From Argentina anserina (taxonomy: Eukaryota; Streptophyta; Magnoliopsida; Rosales; Rosaceae), in NCBI RefSeq assembly GCF_933775445.1, contig NC_065872.1, positions 7,626,001 through 7,690,000 of the forward strand: a DNA stretch of 64,000 nucleotides. The letters are read 5' to 3'. Position 1 is the stretch's first letter, and every line of letters begins with the position of its first letter. Positions 11,191-37,820 of this stretch are shown here, piece after piece. The notes under the pieces were generated by a model, which ran no database searches, was not told the origin of the DNA, and saw only the letters and a list, made by a program, of their open reading frames with translations. Made by a program: the position numbers and the translations under genes.

Positions 11191-12205
11191 ATGTCATCGC
11201 CATCTCGACCAGAATTTGGCATTCTTGATCTAGAAGGAAAAAAATACCACCGTTGGGTTCCCAACATGAAGCTCACTTTCGAGAGCCGAGGGATCGAAGG
11301 CATGTTTTCCGACCCTCCTGCTGATTTCCCACCCATGGCTAAGACTCAAACTCTCATCGTCATGAGACGTCACATCCATGCAATTCTCAAGAGGCAATAC
11401 TTGAATGTAAAAGATCCTAAAGAATTATGGGACAAACTAGGCTTACGGTACAACAACGTTCATGATAAGCTTCTCCCTGAATTGACCGTTAGATGGGATA
11501 ACATCCGTCTATTAATGGACTATAAGAGAGTGGATGATTTCAATCAGGATATGCTATGCCTGCAATCCGATCTTGGCACCGTTGGTGTCATCAAGACCGA
11601 CCTAGATCTTCTCAATAAGACATTAGACACGTTTCAAATCAACTATGAGGTTCAAGCTCATACGTACCGCACTCATGTAGGGGAAGGGAAGATCCAGTCT
11701 TTCGCCAACTTAATGGCGCTCTTGGCTAAGAAGGAGAGACATTCTGAGATCCTCCTCAACAACAACAATAGACCTGTTGGCACTAAAAATATTTCTACGT
11801 CACAGTCTAACTATGGGAAAGCTCCTAAGCAAAAGAATCAATTAAGGAACGCTCCATACCAGCACCAAAACAACAACTCTCATGGTGGGAGGCAACAAGG
11901 CCGGTCTCGGCCTAAGTCAAATACTTGGACTCGTGATGGTGGCGGCGCCGCACCCTCTGGGGGAGGCCGTCCTCATCCCAAACCTCAAGGAGGCGCACAC
12001 GCCTCCTTATGCCTTCACCTCCAGTAATGGCAAGTCTCCATGTTTCAAATGTGGCTCCTTTAAGCACTTTAATCGCTATTGTCGCGCTAGCAAAGAGATG
12101 ATCAAGGCATACTCCGCCTACAAGAAGTTTCTACAACCCGAATCGAATCATGTGGATGAGGACCCTGAGATCGAGACTCACCACATCTCCATGAAGCCCG
12201 GCTAA
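11191..12205 (+). pseudogene. Copia gag (frameshifted before the zinc knuckle)
   Basis: The frame opening at 11191 (MSSPSRPEFGILDLEGKKYH) is a typical plant Copia gag. It includes the core WDNIRLLMDYKRVDDF. It stays open to about 12027, but the natural C-terminus continues in another frame: CFKCGSFKHFNRYC is a CCHC zinc knuckle (C-x2-C-x4-H-x4-C) for RNA binding, ending at 12205. The switch lies near 11990. A single indel separates the two parts, so this copy would yield a capsid protein without its knuckle. The ATG directly follows TTTTTGTAG, which resembles a splice acceptor. Confidence 0.85.
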
Positions 12206-13205
12206 GCCTCCGGCCGCTACCATGGATACTCCCGACTTTGATTAGTCGTTTTAGTTTCTTTAGCTTTATGATTTCAAGTATTGATATGGTCGACCGCCAT
12301 TTTTATTTTCATTGACTTTGTAATAGTCTTTTTATTTTGGAATTAGAAGTTCATGTGTGATGTATTAAAGATTGACATTCAATAAAATTTCTCATTTTCT
12401 TGCTTACAAGACGATCTCTTTGAGAATTTTATTTACCTTACACTTAGCATGATGATGTGTGCAACTCACGTGGTTTTTAAATTGGACGTTTTTGGGTTAC
12501 ATGAGACCCCAATAGCACTACATTGTGAATTTGGAACTTAACATTTGGAAAACGGACCTCGGAACGTCAAAAACGACGTCATTTGGCCCTTGGACGTACC
12601 CGGTTACTGTTCCGGCGTTTCCGGAACGTTTTTCGGCGTATTGGCCGCCTTCCGGCCACTTTCCAGCATTTCCGGCACTGCCATCCGGTTCCTGTCGGCG
12701 TCCCCTGTCGGACCTGAAGCTTCGGCCTCCATATCGGCCAGCTCCGTCCGCAGCCGGCCGGTTTTCCGATAATTGGTGCTGCCGGTTTCCGGTGAGTTTT
12801 CTGACGATTTTTTCGTCGTTTCTCGTCATTTTTCTGGCATATGTCCAGCAGTCCTTGCTGCCACGTTTTCCTAGTCCAAATTTCACCCGGTTTTGAGTTC
12901 TTCTGACATGGTTTTCCGGTTAGTTTTCCAGTTTTCTCCAAGTCCGTTATATACACTCACCGGCACTGTTTGTATGTGTTTCCACACCATTTTTGGATGG
13001 TTTCTACCACCCTAGTTTACTGTTTGGTATTTCACTGCTTCAATACCATGTTTTCTAACTTTTTAGTTGAAGAATGTAGTACTATTGCCATGTGATACAT
13101 TCGATGGGATCGCATTTTGTTCTGATTCTGTTTCTTACAATATCCTACAACGTATTGTAACGAATTGTTCTTATGTCGCTGACTCTCTTAATTGTCATTT
13201 TGTAG
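12206..13205 (+). other. Gag-pol spacer of the Copia element
   Basis: About 1 kb with no conserved domain. Positions 12595-12910 are GC-rich and studded with TTCCGG/TTTCCGG words, giving open frames on both strands that match no family. A donor-like CCG|GTGAGTTTT at 12792 and an acceptor-like TTTTGTAG at 13198-13205, directly before the pol ATG, suggest a possible intron. Confidence 0.5.
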
Positions 13206-16200
13206 ATGTCCCGCGGTGAAATCGAATATCTAGCTGATTGCGGAACCACCCACATTGTCCTACGGCACATGCAGTTGTTCACAGATCTAGTGTTTTCGAC
13301 TTCTTCGATGACTACAATGATTGGCTCGAAATCGATCATTCAAGGAAGATGCACTGTTTCTTTCATGTTGCCTAATGGTATGACTCTCAACGTCGTAGAT
13401 GATCTTTATGTGCCAAAGTCTCCCCGCACCTTGCTAAGTTTTAAGGACATACGTGACAGTGGTTTTCACCTCGATACTTATGTTGAGAATGGAGAGGAAT
13501 ATCTTTGTGTTACATTTGAAAAAGCAGGCCAACGTCGCATCTTAAAGAAGATGAAGAGTCTTAGGAATGGTTTGTATCTTACTTCCATTCGAATCTTTGA
13601 ATCATATGCGGTTGAACACAACTTTTGTGATTCAGACTCTTATATGCTTTGGCATGCCCGTCTCGGGCACCCTGGACGTGATATGATGATTAGAATTTTT
13701 AAGAATTCATATGGTCATTCATTTTTCAAGTCCCGGAAGCGATTGGAGGATCACCCCACCTGTGCTCCACACGGTGAGGCAGTGCCTACCCGTGCACCGC
13801 ACGGTGTGGCCAAGCCTGCCTATCTCGGTAGCCCCACGGCTTTCATGTCGTCGGTGGTGGCATCCCCTCCTTCACAGGAGCTTGTGATGCCTCCCGTGCT
13901 TTCTAATGCATCCATGGCAATTTCTGATGCCCATCGCTCGTTTTGCAAAGCTTTTTCTCTTGCTAAATTTCAAGAAAGTCATTCTTTTGCTAAGGCTTCG
14001 ACCGAGAACATTCCATTCTTACAACGTATCCAAGGTGACATTTGTGGACCTATTCAACCAGAAGGCATACCTTTTTGATATTTTATGGTATTGGTTGATG
14101 CATCGACGCGTTGGTCACACGTCGCTTTGTTATCCACAAGGAATGCTGCATTTGCTAAGTCATTAGCTGAGATTATTAAACTTCGAGCTCACCACCCCGA
14201 CTATCCTAACAAATCCATTCGTTTGGATAATGCTGGAGAATTCACCTCTAAAACTTTTGATGATTACTGCATGTCTATTGGGATCGAAGTTGAACATCTC
14301 GTTCCTCATGTTCATTCACATAACAGTCTAGCTAAGTTATCCACAAGGAATGCTGCATTTGCTAAGTTATTAGCTGAGATCATCAAACTTCGAGCTCACC
14401 ACCCCGACTATCCTAACAAATCCATTCGTTTGGATAATGCTGGAGAATTCACATCCAAAACTTTTGATGATTACTGCATGTCTATTGGGATCGAAGTTGA
14501 ACATCTCATTCCTCATGTTCATTCACATAACAGTCTAGCAGAGGCTACCATCAAGCGTATTCAGCTTTTGCTCGGACAATGGTTTTGGGTACTAACCTGC
14601 CGGTCTCTGCGTGGAGATATGCAGTGTTGCATGCAACGACACTTATTCGTTTCAGACCCGCGGCTAACCAAGCGTTTAGTGCGTACCAGATGGTAACTAG
14701 TTACGTACCCAATATTTCACACTTACGCATTTTTGGTTGTGCCGTCTATGTGCCTATTACGCCTCCACTGCGTACTAAGATTAGTCCTTAGAGACGATTA
14801 GGTATCTATGTTGGCTATAATTCCCCAACGATTGTCCGCTACTTAGAACCAACCACCGGAGATTTCTTTATTGCAAGATCTGCATATTGTCACTTTGATG
14901 AGACATGCTTCCCGTCGTTAGGGGGAGATGAGAATGTTATCATTCCAAATGAACATCAGGAATTGACGTGGTGTGTTCCCACTATCATTATGACCCCCGC
15001 ACTGCTCAAAGCGAGTTAGAAGTGCAACGCATTATCGACCTCCAGAAAGTCGCGGATTTGATGCCTGACGGCTTTGTAGATATTGCTAAAGTGACGAGAT
15101 CAAACATACCCGCTGCAAATGTACCGACACGGTTAGATGTCCTGAAATACGGGCGTGGAAGACAAGCTCTTGGACCTAGCAACGTTGGCACCGCCCCTGA
15201 AAGTGGGACGGAGGCCGGCGGCGGCACCACTGTACGCCGTGGTGTTGCTGGTGCCCCTTGTGGCGACGATGCCGAGATGGTCCGGCAAGGAGCTGCTTCA
15301 GCCTCGGCTCCTCAAAGGAAAATGGGGAGACCGATAAACTCTAGAGATTCAAAGCCTAGAAAGAAGCGAATGACCAAGGCACATCGCGTTATCAACGATG
15401 AATCACCATCGTATGAAGTTGTCTCTGATTACAGCTATGTCCATGAATCAACTCAAGTGTTTACCGTGGGATGCTATGGAACCTTGTTTGATACTAAAGA
15501 ACAACGAAATCTCAGTTAACTACACAAGTGAGCATTCGGTCCGAAACCGAGCCACTACATGCATTGATGACGTTTTCACTTATTCCGTTGCACATGAGAT
15601 TATATCTGAAGACAACGTTGAACCTCGCTCTGTAGCTGAATGCAAACGTAGAGCAGATTGGCCGAAGTGGAAGGAAGCAATCCAGGCAGAACTCTATGGG
15701 GATCTTGACGCAGAGATATACATGAAAGCTCCACAGGGACTACCTTTACCTCCATCAAGTGCCTCCATACCACATAGTACGGGTTGAAGCAATCTGGTAG
15801 AATGTGGTACAATCGGTTGCATCGATACTTGGTGAGAATGGGTTATAAGAATGATGAACTATGCCCATGTGTGTTCATACGAAAGAGAAATTCCAGATTC
15901 TTCATCATTGCGGTCTACGTTGATGACATGAATATAATTGGTACTCTTGATGAGATTGAAGAAACCGTGTCTTATTTGAAGTTGGAATTTGAGATGAAAG
16001 ACCTAGGGAGAACGAAATTCTGCCTCGGCCTTGAGCTTGTGCATAGGGCCGACGACATCTTAGTCCATCAGTCGAATTACATGCAGAAGATGCATCGATG
16101 TTTCAATATGGATCTATGCAGTCCATTGTCTACTCCCATGGTCGTCCGAAGTCTAGATATCAAGAATGATCCATTCCGTCCTAAAGAGGATGATGAAGAA

Positions 16201-17079
16201 GTTCTTGGTCCTGAAGTTCCATACCTTAGTGCAATTGGGGCATTATTGTATCTTGCTCAATGCACTAGACCGGACATATCTTTCGCAGTGAACTTATTAG
16301 CTAGATTTAGCTCCGCGCCTACACTACGTCATTGGAATGGAATCAAGCATTTGTTTCGGTACTTGAAAGGTTCATTTGACATGGGATTGTTCTACCCCTA
16401 TTGCAGAGAGAACACCGCCACGGTATCTCCCCACACCACCGCCGTCATCGACCCCGGCCTTGCCGCCGTACGCCGCAGCAACGCCGCCGGCCGCCATGGT
16501 GTGGATACCATGCACGGTGCCGAGAGCAGCAACCGGTCTCGTGCTGCTCCTTCCCCCGATGCAAAGACTCCAAACAACTTGTTATTTGGTTATGCTGACG
16601 CAGGGTACCTCTCTAACCCTCATAAAGCTCATTCTCAAACCAGTTATGTGTTTACCATTGGGAATACAACGATATCTTGGAGATCCACGAAGCAAACTCT
16701 TGTTGCTACTTCTTCGAATCATGCGGAGATCATCGCTCTCCATGAAGCAGTTAAAGAATGTGTTTGGCTACGATCACTCGTTCGTCATATTGATGATTCT
16801 TGTGGATTAGTCTCTACAACTGATCAACCTACGTGCATTTATGAAGATAATGCTGCTTGCATAGAGTAGACAAAGTTAGGTTTCATCAAAGGAGACAACA
16901 TCAAGCATATTTCGCCCAAGTTCTTTTACAACGTTCAACAACAGAAGTTTTTGAATGTTCAGATCAATTAAGTAAGTTCAGAATCCAATGTTGCGAATTT
17001 GTTCACCAAGTCTTTGCCTAAATATACTTTTGTGAAACATGTGAAGAGCATTGACATGCGTCGTTTATCAGAACTTTAG
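13206..17079 (+). pseudogene. Copia pol (protease, integrase, RT, RNase H), inactivated
   Basis: In order: a protease-like site ADCGTTH near 13235; a GAG-pre-integrase motif LWHARLGHP near 13650; the integrase core (RLDNAGEF and a later Glu), interrupted by an in-frame TGA at 14076-14078 and containing a 207-bp in-frame duplication; frameshifts near 14575, 14970 and 15500; the RT start WPKWKEAIQAEL fused directly to YGDLDAEIYMKAPQGL, so much of the N-terminal RT is deleted; the RT catalytic YVDD near 15920; RNase H (YADAGY, IYEDNAACIE) with a stop at 16867; and a terminal NVANLFTKSLPK. It cannot encode a working polyprotein. A Pro/Ala-rich stretch lies between RT and RNase H (about 16400-16560). 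Confidence 0.9.
14130..14543 (+). repeat. 207-bp tandem duplication inside the integrase
   Basis: Two adjacent copies (14130-14336 and 14337-14543), each starting TTATCCACAAGGAATGCTGC, with few mismatches. The period of 207 bp is 69 codons, so the frame is kept. Each copy encodes LRAHHPDYPNKS and RLDNAGEFTSKTF, so the middle catalytic Asp of the DDE triad is present twice. Only the second copy continues into AEATIKR with the third acidic residue. Confidence 0.92.
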
Positions 17080-22899: not shown

Positions 22900-23042
22900 A
22901 TGACAACACCGTCTCACGCCGTCGTCATGGCCTCGTTCTCCGAAGAAGATCCATGACGATGAGCTGGAAAATGGATCTTCTTCTCCAGGACCTCATCGTC
23001 GAGTCTTTCGTTATTACAGTCTTGTCCTCCTCCTCATGCTAG
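22900..23042 (+). promoter_or_regulatory. Two overlapping upstream ORFs before the MAPKKK start
   Basis: uORF1 (22900-22956) encodes 18 residues, MTTPSHAVVMASFSEEDP. uORF2 starts at 22953 inside the stop of uORF1 (ATGA overlap) and runs to 23042, encoding 29 residues beginning MTMSWKMDLLLQ. It ends 8 bp before the preferred kinase ATG at 23051 and overlaps the alternative in-frame ATG at 23036. This would be expected to lower initiation at the main ORF. Transcript boundaries are not known from sequence. Confidence 0.5.
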
Positions 23043-23050
23043 ACATCACC

Positions 23051-26000
23051 ATGCGTTGGTTTGCTTCGTCTTCATCATCATCTGCTCCATCGTCATCATC
23101 CTCGCCGAAGAAGAAGTCCAGGGTGGACAGCGGGTGGATGTTTCGGTCGAGGAGGAAGGCCTCGCAGCAGCAGAGGAAACTGCTCAATGTGGGGAGAGAC
23201 TATGACGGTGTAAGCAAATCTTCCAGCGCTTCGGGGTCGGAGTCTGCGCTGGCAAGCCCTCAGCCGCTTCCTTTGCCGGAGTCGGCCAACCGCCGAGGAG
23301 GAAGGTGTTCTCGCTGTAGCTCATTGGGACATGAGCAATGCTTCCCTTCCCCGGCTCCCAGGTAATGGAGAAAAAGCTTCTCATTTCTCATCAACAATGA
23401 TTGTTGAATGGCAGTTTTATATTATCACAGTTGTTTTAGAGGAAAAAAAATGGTAAAAATGGCATGTGGATTGTCATATTTGCAAGCAGCCAAGGATGTT
23501 CATATTGGTGAAATTGCATAATCGATCTCTTCTGAAGTTTTAGCTTTAGGAAGTTTCTTGATCTGTACATTCTGAGGACTAATGCTATGAGTTCGGTGTT
23601 GAAAATGTGTTTCAGTGTGTTTTCTTGCCAAGATAATCCAAAGAATAACAATCAAGTACGTGAGACAGTGTCGTCTAGGAGGAATAATCGAGATCGAAAT
23701 CGTTTACAAATTGGTGAATATGACTTCAGTCTTGATTTTCCTGTTAGAAGTGCACCGACTAGTCCATGCGCAAGTCCTAGATTGTGTGGGCACAGACCAA
23801 CTGTTGCTGATTTTGGGGCTCCTCCAGGAAATCAAGTCTGGTCTGCACCGGGGATGACTGTTAATGATATGACTCAACCCCCCCATGCCTTACCAGATGT
23901 ATTTAGTAATGAAAGTTCCCCTATAAACAGTCCCACAGGTAGAAGTCCCCTTCGACAACCACAAGGATCATCCCCACTGCATCCCCGGTTATCTGTTACC
24001 TCTGAAGTCTATCCATTGCCTCTGCCTCCAGGAGCAAGTCTCCCTTCACCTAGTGTGCCATCACCACAACCCGCACTCACACCTAAGCAAGAGTCCCAGC
24101 CAATTAAAGGGCAATGGCAAAAGGGAAAGCTTATTGGTCGCGGCACATTTGGCAGTGTGTATGTTGCTACCAATAGGTACATGCAGTTCATTCACTTCAA
24201 TGTGCATTTAATTGTAGCTTTTTCTTTGTTTGTGGCAATTTCTGATTAACTGCTTAATTTGCATCAGAGAAACTGGTGCTTTATGTGCAATGAAAGAAGT
24301 TGAACTACTTCCTGATGACCCGAAATCAGCAGAGTGTATAAAGCAGCTACAGCAGGTTATTATGCAATATCTTTCACATCTTTATGGGGATGCATGACAT
24401 GCCTTTTACCTTGTGACAAGTAGAATTGTAGGTTTAGCTTCCTGGATTTCCCTTTGACATCAGCTTTTCCTTGTATCACTTCTCAGTTTCTGGAAATTAT
24501 TGGTTTTGTGGGTTAGTAAAATCTGCATATAACTATTTAGATATAGGGATGTAGATACTAAATGAAGTTTATTCATAAATTGTATTAAGGATGTATGCTA
24601 CTAGTTTGTCATTCAATCCCTCTTTTTATCAGGAAATCAAAGTCCTCAGCCAGCTCAAGCATCCTAATATTGTGCAGTACTATGGAAGTGAAATTGTGAG
24701 TAACGTCTTTTATGGTTGGGCATCCTCATGTTTTGTGACTTTTTCATTGGAATGCCTTAAAAAAGCACCATCTACTTTTATGTATATGCAGGTTGAAGAT
24801 CGGTTTTTTATATATCTGGAGTACGTTCATCCTGGTTCTATAAACAAATATGTTCATGAACATTGTGGAGCCATGACAGAAGCTGTTGTTCGCAGTTTTA
24901 CTCGCCATATACTTTCTGGGTTGGCTTACTTGCACGGCACAAAAACAATACACAGGTACTCTCAGAATAAAGACTTTCTTCGTCTCAAACAAACGAAAAA
25001 AAAATATATATGTATAAAGACTTTCTAGACTTACTGCAATCTGAGACTAGACTTGATGAAGCAAATAAGAATGAGTAACTAATCTATGATCAATTTCTGT
25101 CATTAACTCATTCAGAAATGAGCAAGATTTATTATCGGAAAAAAGACCTATATCATTGCTCTTTGGATCTATTTATATGCATATTATTTGATTTATATCT
25201 GTTTCTCTGTATAGGGACATCAAAGGGGCTAATATGCTTGTGGATTCATTTGGGGTTGTCAAGCTAGCTGACTTTGGAATGGCAAAACATGTGAGTTCTG
25301 GTTCTTTCTTCACCAACTTCCCTAGATTCTAATTGATCACACCCCTTCTGCTCCTTGACATGTTAGCATTAAGCCATTGTATTGCTTTCTGGAATCTTGC
25401 ATTTACGTAGTTTCAATTAATTGCTGTGTAGCTTTCAGGACACGTAGGGAATCTTTCTCTAAAGGGAAGTCCATACTGGATGGCTCCAGAGGTAATATTT
25501 TCTATTCAATATGTTATTTCTACAGAGCTACGCGGCCTATGGTTTCTGATACCGATACAATTTTCATCCTACAGCTGATGCAATCTGAGATGCATAAAGA
25601 TAACAGCTCCGATTTGGCTCTTGCTGTTGATATATGGAGCTTGGGTTGTACTATAATTGAAATGTTCACCGGAAAACCACCTTGGAGTCAGTATGAAGGG
25701 GTAAGCACAAAATGTATCTCTGTTGAGCCATGAAACTATCCTTTACAGTTCGGCCTCTTGATTATTCCGATTGTTATATTCCGGTTCAAATTGCATGTGT
25801 AGTAAAGTGACTGCATGAAACCCTCTTTGAATGCTAAAGCAGCTAAACTCTTGCATATTAATGCAGGCTGCAGCCATGTTTAAAGTCATTAAGGATACTC
25901 CACCAGTTCCAGAAACATTGTCGCCTGAGGGTAAGGATTTCCTTAGGTGCTGCTTCCAAAGAAACCCTGCTGATAGGTCGACTGCTGCAATGCTATTAGA

Positions 26001-26277
26001 ACATCGTTTTGTAAAAAGCTCCCAGCCGCAGGAAGTGCCATCTACAAACTATGCTTCTACTGGGATGAATCTCATGGTAACTATTCAGGCCTTGCCACCC
26101 CACCTGTTTATAATTGTAGTCATTGACCGAAAGATTTATATTGGTAGTGTTTAACAGCCTATGTAATGTCGACAGGAAGGGGCTCAGGCTCCAACTGAAC
26201 TTGAAAGAAAACTATCAAGTTCACTGATGACTCCCAACATCGGCACACGATTAACTATGGGAAAGGCAGCTCTCTAA
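23051..26277 (+). CDS. MAPKKK5/MEKK-type MAP kinase kinase kinase
   Basis: Ten exons: 23051-23361, 23616-24176, 24268-24355, 24633-24695, 24792-24955, 25215-25290, 25432-25491, 25575-25700, 25867-26076 and 26176-26277. All join in frame and predict 586 residues (591 if the ATG at 23036 is used). The first ~275 residues are a Ser/Pro-rich regulatory region. The kinase domain follows: GRGTFGSVY glycine loop, AMKEVEL with the ATP-binding Lys, HRDIKGAN catalytic loop, [12 protein letters not shown] activation segment and [12 protein letters not shown]. Sequence and exon layout resemble Arabidopsis MAPKKK5 and MAPKKK3, which relay immune signals to MKK4/5 and MPK3/6. The C-terminal tail (~30 residues past the GMNLM segment) is shorter than usual for the family. 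It is the apparent parent of the kinase part of the gene at 30349-37820. It converges on the RRP7-like gene. Confidence 0.93.
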
Positions 26278-29568: not shown

Positions 29569-29812
29569 ACCACAACCCACAATCATCACACCTAAGCAAG
29601 AGTCCCAGCCGATTTTAGGGCAATGGCAAAAGGGTAAGCTAATTGGTCGTGGCACGATTGGCAGTGTTTTATGTTGCTACCAATAGGTACATGCATCATT
29701 TCAATGTGATTGTAGGTTCTTCTTTGCTTGTGGTGATTGCTGATTGAGTGTTCACTTTGTATCAGAGAAACTGGAGCTTTATTTGCCAAAAAAGGAAGTT
29801 GAATTACTGCTA
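29569..29812 (+). pseudogene. Relic of the MAPKKK5-like gene (exon 2 end to exon 3)
   Basis: This segment matches positions about 24066-24310 of the upstream kinase gene: the words CCTAAGCAAGAGTCCCAGCC and CAATGGCAAAAGGGTAAGCT, the glycine-loop region, the intron with a shrunken interior, and the start of the next exon (AGAGAAACTGGAGCTTTAT). One extra base before GTTGCTACCAATAGG breaks the frame, and the downstream exon contains further changes. The similarity stops soon after. It lies between the RRP7-like 5' end and the RPW8-kinase fusion, so the N-lobe region occurs three times in 7 kb. Confidence 0.85.
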
Positions 29813-30348: not shown

Positions 30349-33300
30349 ATGGCTGGAGGTGAGATTGTTGCAGGGGCAGCTCTAGGACTACCGTTTAATA
30401 TCCTGTATGATGTGATCAAGGAAGTGATGACCAAGACTACAATGTTCAAACCCCTTCTCGGAGATCTTAGCTCCACCATGGAGAACTTGCATCCAGTGAT
30501 CAATGACATAGCCAAGCACAACAAGGACTTGGGACGTCCAGAGGAGGAACTACAGAGTTTCAAAAAGCAAATGGAGAATGGGGCTGAGCTTGTTCGAAAG
30601 TGCTCCAAGGTTGGTTTATGGAGAAGCTACAAGAAATATGGATATGCCAATAAGCTGATGGAGTTGGACAAATCTCTCAATAGACTATTAGCTATACTCG
30701 GCGTGCAGGGTATAAGAACCGGGATGGAAACGTTGGTGGTGGTGAAGGAAACATTGACTACAGTGAAGAGAATTGAAGACAATGGTGCTGGTACAGAAGA
30801 GAAAATTGTGGTGCATAATCTGATGGAGTTTCAGAAGGGAAAGCTTATTGGGACAGGTCCATATGGACCTCGTTATGTTGGAAGCAATAGGTATGCATAT
30901 ACAGATCTATGTGCAGTTCATCTACTTTTGGCAAATTGTGATCGATTAGGGGGAGTCTAATTTTCTCACGTGACAGGGTAACTGGAGCTTTATGTTCAAT
31001 GAAGGAAGTTGAATTATCTCCCAATGGCTCAATTTCTGCAAAACAATTAGAAATGGTAAGCCAAGGCCCTAGAGATAGCTCTCTATTTTTTCCCTTACAG
31101 AATCAGCTTCATTTAATGTGTTTAGGTAGACTGTTGCATGGTGCTAGCTTGTTCGAATGTAAAATTTGTGGATGATGCTTTATGTAATGTAATGCTGTCA
31201 CTATGCTTCTTACCTGCTGCTTCTTTTTACAGGAAATTGGAATGCTCAGCACCCTTAAGCATTCTAACATTGTGGAGTATTATGGAAGCCAAATGGTGAG
31301 TAGTGAGCTCCGGTACTCCCTTATGTTTAGGCATTTCCAAAATCATGTTTGTCTCGGAATGTAACTGAAATGAGTAGTATAAAATTTCTTGTATATGCAG
31401 GTAGACAATCAATTTTATATATATCAGGAGTATGTCCATCCTGGCTCTTTGAGCAAATATATGAATGAACGTTATGGAGTCATAACAGAATCTATTGTTC
31501 GTAATTTTACTCGCCAGATAGTGACCGGGCTGGCTTACATGCACAGCAAATACATAGCACACAGGTACTATCTCATGTATCAACTCAGCATAAAATTCAA
31601 TTATGCAGGAAAATTGGATTGTGAGGCTAGATAATGATGTTAACAGCGAGCACTTTACCTATTTAGGATGTGTCTTAATTCTTCTCCCGTTGGTGTAGGA
31701 GTATCAAAGGTGCCAATCTGCTCGTTGATACTTGTGGGGTTGTCAAGCTAGCTGATTTCGCGATGGCGCAACAGGTTAATTAGACTCATTCTTTCTCATC
31801 CCAATTCTGTTTTCTATTACTTTGACCAACAGAGATACACCCTTCACTCACAACAAAAAGTGGTGACCATGTGTTCAATGATCAAAACTGTGCTTACTCC
31901 AATATGATTTGGAACTTTTTTTTTTTTGGTAGCTTCCAGGACATGAGCGAACAATTTCTTTAGAGAGAAGTCCACACTGGATGCCTCCAGAGGTCCTTCT
32001 CTAAACACTATGCAATGTTTTCAAGACTTCTAAGGACCAAGATAGACTTGCTTTCGGATACTGATCCAATGTTATTCTCGTAGGTCATTTTTTCTGTACT
32101 ACATGACCATCTTGCTGCTGATATTTGGAGTTTGGGTTGCACAGTCATAGAAATGCTCACCGGAAGACCTCCTTGGAGCGAGCACGGAAGTGTAAGCAGA
32201 ATATTCATTCAACTATATACTACTTGTTACATTATTGTGTTTCAATAGTTGATGTTGCAATTACTGTAGTAACTGATCAGATGCTGCTCCTGCTGTAAGG
32301 GTTATATACCCCAATAGAGTTTGGTAAAATGATGCTTCTTCAGTGTAATGTATAGCTTAGTCACATTGCATTCTGGAACTGCTACCAGGACGAGTTTAGT
32401 GTAACACAGTTTGCAATACGTTTAGATGTCCCTATGTTATCTAAATGAGTAATGCTAAATGGACCACCAATTATTGAACCACCTATGGACCACCTGACGT
32501 GGCAGCTGATGTGGCATGCCTACATCAGCAAAATAGAATTTTTGGTTTTCATTATTCTTTGGTTTTTTTTATTTCGAAATTCTTTTCTATTCCACTTTTT
32601 TATTTTCCTTATTTATTCATAAAACCCTATCTCTTTATATCTTATTCATCTTTTCAAACAATACAAAATTATCTGCTTCAACAGACGTTGTTCTACACCC
32701 CATGTTCTCCTCTCAACGATTCATCCCCCCCTCCCCCCCACCCATCTTCTAGTTGATCGAATTCCCAATTTGATTTTATAATTTTAACGAATACTTTTAT
32801 CTATTCTAAAAGTTTGTTTTTTTTTTCATAACATGTTTGAACTTTAGGTTTTGACGGATCGGAACTGGAATTGAATTGGGATTTTTTTGTTTCTCAAAGG
32901 GCTAGGTTTTGAGAAACATACTCTTTACTTATTACTGTCATACTCATAGTTGTGTTTTTTCATTTCTCAAAGGCTTCGTTATGAGTATTATACTCTTAAC
33001 CTCTTCGCTTAGCTTTTATCGATCATCTCTTTCTCAGTTAATTAGTTTATGAGTTTACAAGCACTATTACAAGAATTATATCTTGTAATCAGCCAAAACT
33101 TGGTTGGGCATGTATCATATCTTTTGTGGAACCTTAATCAATTTGACTTCAAAACTTTAATCAATTTATTGCACGATTGAATGAAAATTTATCATTTAAA
33201 GACATACATATATACTCAATGATCCATAATATTCGAAGGGAAGTGGGATTAGATTAAGGACTTAAGACTGCGGAAGAGGTCACTATATAGAGTGCCTACC

Positions 33301-36300
33301 TTGAAACGGTGCAGCTAGACATGAATATAGACCATGAACTAGATATGTTTAGAGTTTTGGTTGATGACATTCTAATGTTAGCAATAAGCTCTTAGGACGT
33401 GTAGGATTTGGTACCAAAAGTCATTAGACAATATGAGTCATACAATATACACCTTGTATTGCAGCATGATCTTATTTATGCTTCTTAATTCATTTTTTGA
33501 CAGGTTGCAAACTTATTTTATTCAATGCAAAAATGCATATACATACTCAATACTCAGTGTCTCATGTTACTTACAAAATCCTTCTGTTTCATATGGCAAA
33601 AGTTGTTATGTGAATAAAAAAGACAAAAAAAACATGAAAGAAATCTCTACTACAATGTGAGACAAAAATCTTTCAACTGGGATATAAGACACAAAAGAAA
33701 ATGTAAAAAAAACATTAATTTTAGCAAGATCAATTGGAATATGTAAGCTCTGCTCCTGGTCAATGTTGTAATCAAACAAGATCACTTGGTTTACCTGCAT
33801 CAAATCAATTTCACAGCATTATATACAAAAACATTCACACAAAAATAACTTACTAAATAGAGCTTGAACACATATATACCTTCAGTCAATTTTTTTTCCA
33901 TCAAATTGTTTCCAATAGTCTTTTCGATGGTATACGAACTCTTCTGGTATTGCCACTTGTGGAGGTTGAAATGTCCTATAGAAAAACAAGGACACAATGT
34001 TTTATAAGATAAACTATTTTTTAGGCTTAGAAACTACAATCTGACACTACAAAATAAAAACTAGACATTTTACCTTCATTCTTTCTCCTTCATTATTTTG
34101 CTTTTTGCTTGCTGCAGACTTGCTCCTTCCATTTTGTTTGTTTTTGACTCCTTTCTCTTGTTCTTTCTCAAAGTCATTCTTTTCTAAGGGTCGGCGACTT
34201 GCTGTGCTTGAACTCTACAAAAACAAAATAACAATACATGATACATTATTATTCTTGGACAAACAAACTTCAACCTCTGTTTTAAAATAATAAATAAAAG
34301 AAATTAATCATTATAAGCTACATACCTTCCGTCCAGATTCCTTTAGCACCAGTCTCACCATTTTTCTTCTTTTGTTCTCTTTTTTGTTTCTTTCTTACCT
34401 CTTCCTCTACCTTAGACACCTTCCTTTTAGATGGTGGCCGACCTTTTCTCTTCTTAACCAGTGGAGTAAGTATGTGCTGACTTGGATTTGAAATACCATC
34501 AACTTCGCACCCATTAGTATTAATAGGTGACCCAGGCACTGGTTCAACACCTCCACAAGCGCCAGTGGTGTTGGACTCGTGTTTGGATAGTTCATCTTTT
34601 AGGTTGTTCAAACAAGACAAAACTATCATACACTTATCTTCAGAATCATACGCTAATTCCTTAATATCGTCAAAGTTCTTTTGCATTTTGTCAAGCCTTT
34701 GTGAGTCAGGTCTAGCATCCCATCCGCCATAACTGATTTTAACCATTGTGTGACATCTCTTCACATCCTTTCTCCATCTTCTCATGATATATTTGTCAGG
34801 AATCATGATTTTCTTATGACAAATCAAAACATATATCGCATGTCTGCATAGTATACCTCTAAACTGAAAGAGGCAACAATTACAGTGAATATCATCACTT
34901 TCTTCGTTGAATGAAACCTGAAAGTGAACAGTTTTCTTCATCTCTCCAACCTTGATATCTTTAGAAATTATGTACTCTGAAACTGAGTTATCCACTTCAA
35001 CAGAAATGAAGTCACAATACATTTTACCAGTTAATTCATCTCGAAACTCTTTAAACTTTGAAATTGTGTAAATATTGTGTGCTTGTACCTCCATGTCATA
35101 ATGAGTTGCACCAAGAAGACTATATGAGAAACACTTAAAATCTTCATGGTTTTCTTTCTCCACCTTACTTCTCAGTGCATTTTCATACTGCTCAACAAAT
35201 TGTTTCAAGGTAGTCTTAGAATTGACATGGCCATCAAAGAATGAATTCATACTTTCACTTCTTTGTGTGGTAGACATTCCTGCCCAAAAAAAATCTTTAA
35301 CAAAACTTGGAACCCAACGAGTTCTCTCCTCAAACATGACATCCAACCAATCATTTTTCTGCAACTCATACTTCTTAATCATCTCATCCCAACGTTCCTC
35401 AAACTCAATACGAGATAATGAATCATAAATTGTGTTTAACAAGGTTATCGAGATAGATTCATATTTTGCATATCCTTTTAACTTTTCAGGAAGTTTCTTT
35501 AGTATATGCCACAAGCACCAACGGTGCCTAGTATTCGGGAAGACAATCTCAATGGCGTTTCTCATAGCTCTATCTTGATCAGTAATAATTCCACCAGGAG
35601 CATTCCCAGACATGCATGCTAGCCAAGACTTGAATAACCAAACAAATGTCTTTTTTATCTTCACTTGAAATCAACCCACATCCTAGCAATATCGACTGTC
35701 CATGATGATTAACCCCCACAAATGGAGCAAAAGGCATTTCATACTTATTTGTCAAATAAGTAGTGTCAAATGTAATAACATCACCGAATTCATGGTATGC
35801 TGCCCTACTCCTTGCATCTGCCCAAAACAAATTTCTCAGTCGACCCTTTTCATTTATATCAATGGCATAGAAGAAATTAGCATTCTTGGCTTGCATATCC
35901 AAAAAGTAAGTTTGAACTGCACTAGCATCACCTTCCTTCAGCCGCAATCTCCTCATTTTTTCAATGTGATTTCGAGCATCTTTTTCTAAAAATGGTACAT
36001 TCTCATATCCCCGAGCTTCAACAACAATCAAGTTGTAACTCTTGTTTGTCCCTATTTTAGCAACATCATTCAACTCAAGCCTCCTCTTGATTGATGAACT
36101 TAATCCACGATTGACTGCGAAATAACGAGACTTTCTTGGACTCAAACCATGATTATGCTCAAGCTTTACAGAATTAATTTTCCAATTTCCATCAAGGGAT
36201 TAACCAAGTCTAATAAGTGCATTACAATCAGTCTTCACACTTGGACGAGGCTTTAGAGAGTTACTTGTTGTACTTTTAAATTTCCCGGCTCTACCACATG

Positions 36301-37820
36301 AAATAGTAACATATCTTGTACTCCCATCATCTCCCTTTCTTGATGTTCTCTTTTTGACCGGGAATCCTGATTGCTTCCCATATTTCCTATAGTATTCAAA
36401 TGCCTCGTCGATAGAATTAAAACTCATTTCAACATTGGGCTCTTGCATTATGTCTTTTCTCTCTTCTTCTTGATTATTGTCTAAGCTCTTTGATGAATCA
36501 TCTATTTCTGTTCCTAGATCATATATAAATGATTTTCACAAATGTGCCACTAAAACAAAAGACTGTATATTGATAGAAACTTTTTGGTATAGATAACATA
36601 CCTTGTTCATTAAGGAGAGGAATGTTCTCTGATTCGTCTGACAATTGTTCCATTATTTAGCACATGAAAGCAAGTAATATAATATAAACATAGTGAATAC
36701 ATACAATAACAAGTAATCATATCATGAATGATCACAAATGGACACTTTGTGCAATTATCTATGATCGGTAACTAGAGGACAAATGCATAATTTGATCAAC
36801 CCGTGTATTTCATCTTATGTGTACTTATTTACTACACTTAAATCATTCGGGTTTAATTTTTATGTTTTTCTATTGAATGTGAATATGTAGTAGGTCTTTG
36901 ATGATGGGTAAAAGTCTGATCTAATGATAGAACAAAGCAGTTGATGAAGGCAAGGGTGGAATTAAACGCAGCTATGTTTCATGTAAATAAGAAGGAACAA
37001 AACCCTAATTATTCAGATTTGAAAAAAGCAATCGCATCTATCTATGAAAATAAACGCATCATAAGAAGAAACATGGAAACCCTAACCATTCATATATGAA
37101 AAAAAAAACGCAGCTATGAGGACAAGAACAATTGAAGATGTTTACATGTATAATGAGAAACCTTGCAAGACATAAGAAAAAACATTAAAAACCCTAATTC
37201 ACTTCCACTTTTTCCCGCAAACCTAAATTTCTGACATGTTTTAATAAAAGAAAGAAAACTAACCACGTTTAGAATAGGCAAATATGCTATGAACCAGAAA
37301 GTCAAAATATTCAGATTACGAAGAATCGATGAGGAGGTGGGAGGATGAGTAAGATTGTTGCTTGAGCGGATAACAGAAAGGGTTTGAAAAAGTACGCACA
37401 TAAGAAAAAAAGATAGGGTTTTATGGATAAATAAGGAAAATAAAAAAGTGGAATAGAAAAGAATTTTGAAATAAAAAAACCAAAGAATAATGAAAACCAA
37501 AAATTCTATTTTGCTGATGTGGGCATGCCACGTCAGCTGCCACGTTAGGTGGTGCATAGGTGGTTCAATAATTGGTGGTCCATTTAGCATTACTCTATCT
37601 AAATTCTCTTCTTTGAATGCAGATGCAGGCCTTGTTAAAGATTGCTAGTGGGAATGAAATCCCGCAGTTTCCGGAGACAATGTCGCCGGAGGGCAAGAAT
37701 TTCCTAAGATGCTGCTTGCAAAGAAACCCTGCCGATAGGCCAACTGCTGCCATGTTATTAGGACATCCGTTCTTGAAAATTCCCAGCACCGTCAAACAAA
37801 TTGGGAATAGCCCAGTTTGA
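30349..37820 (+). CDS. RPW8 domain fused to MAPKKK5-like pseudokinase
   Basis: Eight exons: 30349-30890, 30977-31055, 31233-31295, 31401-31564, 31699-31774, 31933-31992, 32084-32191 and 37623-37820. All introns are GT-AG and the frame is open for 429 residues. Residues ~1-130 are an RPW8/CC-R domain of the NRG1 helper type ([47 protein letters not shown]). The kinase part begins at [18 protein letters not shown] within the same exon. Kinase exons of 63, 164, 76 and 60 nt equal those of the gene at 23051-26277. ATP-site Lys (CSMKEVE) and DIWSLG are kept, but HRD reads HRS (HRSIKGAN) and DFG reads DFA, so phosphotransfer is unlikely. The last intron contains a MULE transposon. RPW8 domains of helper NLRs form membrane pores; a decoy or guardee role for the kinase part is inference. 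Expression across the 5.4-kb intron is unproven. Confidence 0.85.
32438..32446. repeat. MULE target-site duplication, left
   Basis: TATCTAAAT, identical to 37596-37604 on the other side of the element. Nine bases is the length made by Mutator-like transposases. Confidence 0.95.
32447..32633 (+). repeat. MULE terminal inverted repeat, left
   Basis: Starts GAGTAATGCTAAATGGACCA and extends to about AAAACCCTATCT. It pairs with 37409-37595. Confidence 0.92.
34074..36653 (-). pseudogene. MULE transposase, FAR1/FHY3 family, lightly damaged
   Basis: Likely exons on the minus strand: 36653-36602 (start [12 protein letters not shown]), 36513 to about 34326, and a Lys-rich exon 34215-34074. Domains: a FAR1 DNA-binding region ([20 protein letters not shown]), a MULE transposase core ([51 protein letters not shown]), and a SWIM zinc finger ([15 protein letters not shown]). 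Two lesions are visible: an in-frame TAA at 36200-36202 after ALIRLG, and a one-base frameshift in an A run near 35650. Apart from these the frame is open over ~700 codons, so inactivation is recent or partly due to sequence error. Related domesticated proteins (FHY3, FAR1, FRS) are transcription factors; TIRs and target site show this copy is still part of a transposon. Confidence 0.88.
37409..37595 (-). repeat. MULE terminal inverted repeat, right
   Basis: Inverse of 32447-32633, ending ...GCATTACTC. The target duplication TATCTAAAT follows at 37596-37604. Confidence 0.92.
37596..37604. repeat. MULE target-site duplication, right
   Basis: TATCTAAAT, identical to 32438-32446. Confidence 0.95.

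What the first reader, a model, noticed from the sequence alone, without database searches (positions are those of the whole stretch)
30349..37820. RPW8 (CC-R) immune domain fused to a MAPKKK5-like pseudokinase
Seen: one start codon and eight exons with clean GT-AG introns give an open frame of 429 residues, with an NRG1-type RPW8 domain in front and a copy of the neighbouring MAP3K kinase domain behind, joined within one exon. Known: RPW8/CC-R domains of ADR1 and NRG1 trigger cell death by forming calcium-permeable pores, and MAPKKK3/5 relay immune signals and are plausible pathogen targets. Inferred: the kinase part may be a decoy or sensor that controls the RPW8 part, without the NB-ARC and LRR of normal helper NLRs. 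I do not recall this architecture as a described immune receptor class.
Basis: partly seen in the sequence, partly recalled or inferred. Interest (0 to 1): 0.93.

Follow-up and report, generated by a model that had tools for sequence, protein, structure and literature searches.

The report
Plant cell-death domain fused to pseudokinase
A silverweed gene joins a membrane-attacking type of immune domain to a catalytically dead copy of the signalling kinase next door; the same joined protein is predicted in rose and, in two overlapping pieces, in bramble, so it is probably a real and unstudied immune switch rather than an annotation accident.

Summary
Eight GT-AG exons (30349-37820) give 429 residues: an NRG1-type RPW8 domain (5-140) joined inside exon 1 to a MAPKKK5-derived kinase domain (161-415); all seven introns keep the parent's phases. 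The source is Argentina anserina (Rosaceae) or a close relative: NCBI's protein for it is identical through exon 7. A full-length Rosa chinensis orthologue (79% identity) has the same join, and Rubus or Rubus-like sequences cover both sides of it. HRD is HRS in all three kinases, with beta-2 valine and gatekeeper also replaced: an inherited pseudokinase. RPW8 is well conserved (91% Argentina-Rosa), the kinase less (74%), its activation segment least in two of three pairs. Best reading: an MLKL-like switch, an RNL executioner domain whose NB-ARC-LRR gave way to a MAPKKK5-mimicking pseudokinase that may be effector bait. Transcript, cell death and trigger are untested. The architecture is not wholly new: a 2016 survey names an RPW8-Pkinase_Tyr fusion in strawberry, and plant MLKLs and wheat Pm13 have a similar layout from other families. 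In Argentina a 5.1-kb MULE sits in the last intron and NCBI's model stops before exon 8, so this copy may be truncated.

The parts
30349..30890 (+). Exon 1: RPW8/CC-R domain (residues 5-140), linker, and start of the kinase domain; the join lies at about residues 151-160
   Evidence: tblastn to the best RNL paralogue ends at residue 151 (154 and 157 in two weaker ones); kinase homology starts at E160-F161
30977..31055 (+). Exon 2 (kinase beta-3/alpha-C; VAIK lysine kept, 3-residue deletion before the alpha-C Glu shared by the three fusion kinases)
31233..31295 (+). Exon 3 (kinase)
   Evidence: DNA similarity to the parent exon
31401..31564 (+). Exon 4 (hinge with L237Q; ends in HR of HRD)
31699..31774 (+). 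Exon 5 (S284 in place of the catalytic Asp; DFA in place of DFG)
31933..31992 (+). Exon 6 (activation segment)
32084..32191 (+). Exon 7; last exon of NCBI's 382-aa model, which reads on into intron 7
37623..37820 (+). Exon 8 (end of C-lobe and stop); matches the corresponding part of the Rosa and Rubus proteins
32447..37595 (.). Mutator-like transposon (MULE) in intron 7: inverted arms of 123 nt, 97% complementary, with FAR1/MULE/SWIM-bearing ORFs on the minus strand (34318-36535) in broken frames
32438..32446 (.). Left copy of the 9-bp target-site duplication TATCTAAAT
37596..37604 (.). Right copy of the 9-bp target-site duplication TATCTAAAT
23036..26277 (+). Neighbouring MAPKKK5 gene (protein P0081, HRD intact), source family of the kinase half
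29569..29808 (+). Separate truncated duplicate of the MAPKKK5 kinase start (81% to 24063-24309)

Best explanation
The gene encodes a two-part immune switch built like MLKL. The N-terminal RPW8/CC-R domain, taken with its linker from an NRG1-like RNL gene, is the executioner (inferred: it oligomerises at the plasma membrane and lets in calcium). NB-ARC-LRR has been replaced by a duplicated MAPKKK5 kinase domain that has lost its catalytic base but keeps the kinase fold. The pseudokinase holds the executioner off and looks like MAPKKK5, so a pathogen effector that binds or modifies MAPKKK5, or an upstream kinase that phosphorylates the activation segment, changes its shape and frees the RPW8 part. 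SHOWN: the joined frame, its presence in Rosa and on both sides of the join in Rubus / Rubus-like sequence, shared loss of the catalytic Asp, unequal conservation of the halves, DNA-level origin with introns kept. INFERRED: cell-death activity, autoinhibition, effector or kinase trigger, membrane location.
For: Joined frame in Argentina, Rosa (423 aa), and Rubus: P0003 (Rubus argutus) runs from residue 126 of the RPW8 domain through the kinase, 15 of 15 residues of 126-140 equal to Argentina; P0122 (source unnamed, 53 of 55 equal to P0003 in the overlap) holds RPW8, linker and kinase start. Argentina-Rosa identity: RPW8 128/140 and fused kinase 189/254, against 263/275 for the MAPKKK5 kinase and 208/269 for the MAPKKK5 N-terminus. 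RPW8 is identical in all three sources at 120 of 140 sites and 25 of the first 30. Of 148 sites at least 95% conserved in 111 MAPKKK5 kinases (111 of the 117 non-fusion hits listed), 15 carry one and the same replacement in all three fusions, among them V175R, A188S, L237Q, H267Q and D284S. The catalytic loop is the most conserved kinase segment in all three pairs (18/21, 20/21, 19/21); the activation segment is the least in Argentina-Rosa (20/37) and Argentina-Rubus (20/38). Fusion-parent dN/dS 0.29; random substitution leaves the frame open in 0.3-3.4% of 5000 runs. Foldseek matches the kinase half to solved kinases. Five of six RPW8 ORFs in the fetched C1:7.495-7.556-Mb stretches read on into a GGCGKTTLA-type P-loop. 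CC-R/HeLo similarity and cell death by ADR1/NRG1 N-termini alone: passages of PMC9950082 and PMC10951266.
Against: No transcript, expression, cell-death or interaction data. The Argentina copy may be truncated by the MULE (NCBI's model ends in intron 7). A fast-evolving kinase is also what relaxed constraint gives, and in Rosa-Rubus the alpha-F/alpha-G segment (15/23) is slightly less conserved than the activation segment (25/37). The predicted model is poor in the RPW8 half (blocks at pLDDT 27-81; linker under 50), so no autoinhibitory interface is shown. MAPKKK5's C-terminal region, which RLCKs are reported to phosphorylate (PMC12170986 passage), is largely absent, so nothing says the known upstream kinases act on it. 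Kinases integrated in NLRs were reported to have a fully conserved active site (PMC4759884 passage), so a dead integrated kinase is not the usual pattern. No strawberry orthologue appeared.
Confidence: 0.45

Rival explanations
1. Membrane-anchored modulator of the MAPK cascade: the RPW8 part only places the protein at membranes, and the dead MAPKKK5-like kinase binds MKK4/5, 14-3-3 or MAPKKK5 itself as scaffold or dominant-negative regulator.
For: MAPKKK5-type ancestry (the three fusions are 57.9, 61.9 and 66.5% identical to Argentina MAPKKK5 against 56.2, 57.1 and 58.1% to the C2 paralogue); the kinase fold and the metal-binding Asn and Asp are kept.
Against: The kinase evolves fast, its activation segment fastest in two of three pairs, odd for a conserved docking partner; RPW8 is the constrained half, its first 30 residues included (25 of 30 identical).
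Confidence: 0.2
2. RPW8-only function with a passenger kinase: the RPW8 part is what selection keeps; the kinase tail is tolerated and drifting, possibly left out by intron-1 read-through, which would give a short RPW8 protein.
For: RPW8 91% against kinase 74%; the exon 1 frame continues into intron 1 to a stop at 30960; further motif changes in Argentina (DFA, PPE).
Against: Kinase frame open in all three genera (Rubus with one 27-residue stretch that I take for an unspliced intron in the model), catalytic loop 86-95% conserved, pairwise dN/dS 0.29, few drift runs without a stop.
Confidence: 0.2
3. In Argentina itself the gene is a recent relic: the MULE in intron 7 ends transcripts before exon 8 and the kinase is cut, while Rosa and Rubus keep the working gene. 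This can be true together with the main reading.
For: MULE with a perfect 9-bp duplication and 97% complementary arms; NCBI's model stops inside intron 7; DFG and APE changed only in Argentina.
Against: Exon 8 and its acceptor site are intact; introns of 5 kb can be spliced in plants (recalled).
Confidence: 0.3
4. Gene-model artefact: two separate genes joined by annotation.
For: No transcript evidence available; the Rubus argutus model starts at an internal Met inside exon 1 and so lacks most of RPW8.
Against: The join lies inside one exon, and the in-frame stretch across it is kept in Rosa and Rubus; P0122 carries both sides in one frame.
Confidence: 0.05

Closest known systems
Plant MLKL (HeLo/DUF1221 + pseudokinase)
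   Same: N-terminal four-helix cell-death domain followed by a kinase domain lacking catalysis
   Different: Here the helix domain is RPW8 (PF05659), with no DUF1221 match at E<=1, and the kinase is MAPKKK5-derived; found here in three Rosoideae genera, whereas plant MLKL is reported across seed plants (PMC9950082 passage)
Wheat Pm13 (MLKL_NTD-kinase fusion protein)
   Same: Kinase fusion protein with an N-terminal cell-death-type domain; mutations in N-domain, brace and kinase lose resistance (PMC10951266 passages)
   Different: Pm13's kinase is RLK-type with key catalytic residues present; its N-domain is MLKL_NTD
RNL helper NLRs (NRG1, ADR1)
   Same: Same CC-R/RPW8 domain at the N-terminus; the PDB sequence matches are At5g66900; an RNL-like cluster lies 0.1-0.16 Mb away on the same chromosome
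   Different: No NB-ARC or LRR; a pseudokinase stands in their place
Strawberry RPW8-Pkinase_Tyr of Zhong and Cheng 2016 (PMC5039405)
   Same: RPW8 and a kinase domain in one predicted protein, in another Rosoideae genus
   Different: Named only in a domain list; gene, kinase family and catalytic state are not in the passages and section that I read, and its Table S3 could not be read, so orthology is unknown
MAPKKK5 (immune MAP3K)
   Same: Source family of the kinase half, same intron phases
   Different: Long N-terminus and C-tail absent; catalytic Asp, gatekeeper and beta-2 Val replaced

Membership tests
RPW8/CC-R domain (PF05659) | Pfam score above the gathering cut-off | tested here: met
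   111.8 bits against 30.4; Rosa 112.0, Rubus-like P0122 115.4
RPW8/CC-R domain (PF05659) | Triggers cell death / makes calcium-permeable pores | not testable with these tools
   Needs transient expression
RNL helper NLR | NB-ARC and LRR after the CC-R | tested here: not met
   Only RPW8 and kinase families in the 429-aa frame at E<=0.001
MAPKKK5 / MAP3K | Kinase domain of MAPKKK5 type with shared intron phases | tested here: met
   After the fusion proteins, the hits listed that bear a descriptive name are nearly all called MAPKKK5, MAPKKK or YODA; 7 of 7 phases equal
MAPKKK5 / MAP3K | Catalytic residues (HRD Asp, DFG) | tested here: not met
   HRS in 3 of 3 fusion kinases; DFG is DFA in Argentina, kept in Rosa and Rubus
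Plant MLKL | DUF1221/HeLo N-domain by sequence | tested here: not met
   No DUF1221 among Pfam hits at E<=1 for P0001 and P0002
Plant MLKL | Four-helix bundle + regulatory pseudokinase working as a switch | tested here: inconclusive
   Four helices and a kinase fold predicted, but the RPW8 half and linker are at low confidence
Integrated decoy / kinase fusion protein | Effector binds or modifies the integrated kinase | not testable with these tools
   Needs interaction assays

The most novel reading that the evidence does not exclude
A further, independent invention of the MLKL layout: in Rosoideae an NRG1-type pore-forming domain shed NB-ARC-LRR and came under the control of a MAPKKK5-mimicking pseudokinase, making a resistance protein that reads attack on the MAPK cascade and kills the cell without an NLR.
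Probability: 0.35. Interest if true: 0.87.

Novelty: new variant of a known kind. Interest (0 to 1): 0.7.

Why it matters
If true, the executioner domain of helper NLRs can be wired to a kinase sensor without nucleotide-binding oligomerisation, and the MAPKKK5 branch of pattern immunity has a bait that reports tampering. It would link RNLs, MLKLs and kinase fusion proteins in one testable gene, predicted in rose and bramble as well as silverweed, and gives a natural minimal construct (about 430 residues) for asking how a kinase domain holds a CC-R/HeLo domain off.

Tried and rejected

Other RPW8-kinase joins in the genome: I compared by eye the coordinates of the 36 RPW8 stretches with the scored kinase stretches (145 and 144 matches; lower bounds). 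Besides this locus, one RPW8 stretch has a listed kinase within 10 kb: C2, RPW8 at 29880705 (minus) and a MAPKKK5-like gene whose matches run about 29888.7-29891.3 kb (plus). They lie on opposite strands, so not a fusion.

Age of the duplication: three trees put the fusion kinases together with 100 support, but their attachment to MAPKKK5 is unresolved (at an open fork with the Rosaceae MAPKKK5s, outside them; long branches). No dating claim.

Foldseek showed only kinases in its 50 listed rows; no MLKL or CC-R match was seen there, which says little given the RPW8 confidence.

A paper search by the Arabidopsis gene codes of MAPKKK5 and NRG1.1 gave 0 papers; that the two lie close together in Arabidopsis is recalled only and not used as evidence. 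Two papers asked for by DOI (a plant MLKL paper and a tandem kinase survey, both recalled) are not held.
Full report
WHAT IS THERE. The window lies at C1:7626001-7690000 of a 237-Mb plant genome. A protein search returned an Argentina anserina entry identical to the model through residue 364, so the source is that species (Rosaceae, Rosoideae, Potentilleae) or a very close relative. Eight exons, 30349-30890, 30977-31055, 31233-31295, 31401-31564, 31699-31774, 31933-31992, 32084-32191 and 37623-37820, give 429 residues and a stop; all seven introns are GT...AG. Pfam finds RPW8 at 5-140 (111.8 bits) and Pkinase at 161-415 (202 bits) and nothing else at E<=0.001 apart from the overlapping PF07714.

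WHERE THE HALVES COME FROM. The own-genome loci held cover 12 of the 35 other RPW8 stretches. Among these the RPW8 half matches best an ORF of the C1:7.495-7.505-Mb stretch (51% over 149 residues; 72% over 372 bp of DNA). That ORF runs on into a GGCGKTTLATKFCQD P-loop, with LRR-like ORFs downstream by eye; its NB-ARC Pfam score is below cut-off, since only 40 residues match there (17.4 bits against 23.5). In all, five of the six RPW8 ORFs in the fetched C1:7.495-7.556-Mb stretches read on into such a P-loop. A major RPW8 cluster on chromosome 1 is also reported for Fragaria vesca (PMC6778783, passages). Among solved structures the RPW8 half matches three sequences at E<=0.01, all named At5g66900 (best 7L7W, E 5.6e-6), which I know as NRG1.1. 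The kinase half is MAPKKK5-derived. It is closer to the neighbouring gene at 23036-26277 than to the C2 paralogue, and its seven intron phases equal the parent's, so the copy was made at the DNA level. A second, truncated duplicate of MAPKKK5 lies at 29569-29808 (81% to 24063-24309), which shows that this stretch duplicates locally. RPW8 similarity to the best paralogue ends at residue 151 (154 and 157 in two weaker ones) and kinase similarity starts at 160-161, so the join falls between domains, where NB-ARC would begin in an RNL.

IS IT CONSERVED? One search found 1544 proteins at E<=0.001 and listed 120; by their precomputed Pfam domains 2 of those 120 carry RPW8 with a kinase: Argentina P0001 (382 aa) and Rosa chinensis P0002 (423 aa, 79% identity, 98% coverage, 5 members in its cluster). 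Rubus argutus P0003 (327 aa) starts at an internal Met of exon 1, holds residues 126-140 of the RPW8 domain unchanged (15 of 15 against Argentina), then linker and kinase. A search with the RPW8 half scored by region gave 4 hits from 739 candidates: those three and a strawberry protein with RPW8 but no kinase domain listed. A search with the RPW8 piece alone gave one hit from 44 candidates, P0122: RPW8, linker and kinase start in one frame, then unrelated residues, as if read into an intron. It equals P0003 at 53 of 55 overlapping residues, so it is Rubus or very close, though its source is not named. The joined frame thus occurs in three genera of the subfamily. No strawberry, apple or Prunus fusion appeared in those searches; this does not prove absence, since they need shared five-residue words, limit length, and list at most 120.

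PSEUDOKINASE. Against 111 MAPKKK5 kinases (111 of the 117 non-fusion hits that one search listed; 6 dropped by my start-pattern and length filter), 148 sites are at least 95% conserved; Argentina, Rosa and Rubus differ at 33, 36 and 30 of them, and 15 carry the same replacement in all three, among them V175R in beta-2, A188S beside the VAIK lysine, L237Q, H267Q and D284S, the catalytic base. That L237 is the gatekeeper, and the roles of the other motifs, rest on recalled kinase anatomy. The lysine, the alpha-C Glu and the DFG Asp stay. DFG to DFA and APE to PPE are Argentina-only. A three-residue deletion before the alpha-C Glu is shared. Kinases integrated in NLRs were reported to keep their active site (PMC4759884, passages), so a dead one is a departure.

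RATES. Argentina-Rosa identity is 128/140 for RPW8 and 189/254 for the fused kinase, against 263/275 for the MAPKKK5 kinase domain and 208/269 for its N-terminal part. Slow RPW8 is unusual: PMC5039405 reports RPW8 domains evolving faster than NBS domains, and strawberry RPW8-type genes a median dN/dS of 0.62 (PMC6778783, passages). Within the fused kinase, cut into segments of my choosing, the catalytic loop is the most conserved in all three pairs (18/21, 20/21, 19/21); the activation segment is the least conserved in Argentina-Rosa (20/37) and Argentina-Rubus (20/38), while in Rosa-Rubus alpha-F/alpha-G (15/23) is slightly below it (25/37). Fusion against parent in Argentina: dS 0.84, dN 0.24, ratio 0.29. 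This averages both branches; since MAPKKK5 hardly changes, the fusion branch alone must be higher, perhaps around 0.5 (inference). Random substitution of half, three quarters or all of the observed changes left no stop in 3.4%, 0.7% and 0.3% of 5000 runs each (indels not modelled). So the frame has been kept, with a slow executioner and a fast, still folded, dead kinase.

THE MOBILE ELEMENT. Intron 7 holds a Mutator-like element (32447-37595): 123-nt arms, 97% complementary, a perfect 9-bp duplication TATCTAAAT, and minus-strand ORFs with FAR1, MULE and SWIM domains in broken frames. NCBI's model ends 18 residues into intron 7, before the element. Either the 5.4-kb intron is spliced and the model is short, or the Argentina transcript now ends early and the protein lacks the last 65 residues of the model. 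Rosa and Rubus proteins continue through the exon-8 part, so the ancestral gene had it.

MECHANISM. I commit to an MLKL-like switch: CC-R executioner held by a MAPKKK5-like pseudokinase, with the variable activation segment as the likely contact for an effector or an activating kinase. The passages read support the parts, not the whole: CC-R and HeLo domains are structurally similar, and ADR1/NRG1 N-termini alone kill cells (PMC9950082); Pm13 needs N-domain, brace and kinase (PMC10951266); MAPKKK5 relays chitin and flagellin signals from RLCKs (PMC12170986). Confidence 0.45. Rivals are a membrane scaffold, an RPW8 protein with a passenger tail, and an Argentina-only relic; the last can be true together with the main reading for Rosa and Rubus.

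STRUCTURE. AlphaFold2 on Rosa P0002 with 95 rows gave mean pLDDT 67, pTM 0.60. In the 14 ten-residue blocks over 1-140 pLDDT is 27-81, in the linker 35-48; in the 27 blocks from 161 on, 17 are at 81 or more and the lowest, in the activation segment, 42-58. Helices: 16-30, 40-60, 65-86, 100-118. Foldseek against the PDB listed kinases only in the 50 rows shown. This supports an intact kinase fold and is silent on how the halves touch.

PRIOR PRINT. The phrase search found one paper: Zhong and Cheng 2016 (PMC5039405; [quoted passage not shown] Its supplementary table could not be read, so whether that is the orthologue is unknown; none appeared. In the listings and passages that these searches gave me I saw no description of such a kinase as MAPKKK5-derived or dead, of its conservation across genera, or of a function; most subscription papers are not in the library.

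VERDICT. A real, conserved, unstudied RPW8-pseudokinase fusion, by what I could see: a new variant of the executioner-plus-kinase layout known from MLKL and Pm13, built from RNL and MAPKKK5 parts. Function untested.

Noticed in passing
L024:8216-9079 minus (C1 about 7.6142-7.6151 Mb, upstream of the window): One open frame of 288 aa with RPW8 (74.3 bits) followed by a CCCH zinc finger (41.1 bits): a second RPW8-non-NLR fusion candidate about 41 kb from the fusion gene, so this cluster may make fusions often.
   Followed up: partly
window 29569-29808: Truncated duplicate of the MAPKKK5 kinase start between the parent gene and the fusion.
   Followed up: partly
L026/L027 (C2:29.880-29.892 Mb): A MAPKKK5-like paralogue with an RPW8 stretch about 8 kb away on the other strand: RPW8 next to this MAP3K type occurs twice in the genome, which may hint at an old linkage.
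   Followed up: partly
window 11191-16869: Copia-type retrotransposon ORFs (gag, integrase and reverse-transcriptase-like frames, judged by eye).
   Followed up: no
window 14079-14696: A stretch of about 70 residues is repeated head to tail inside an integrase-like ORF (by eye).
   Followed up: no
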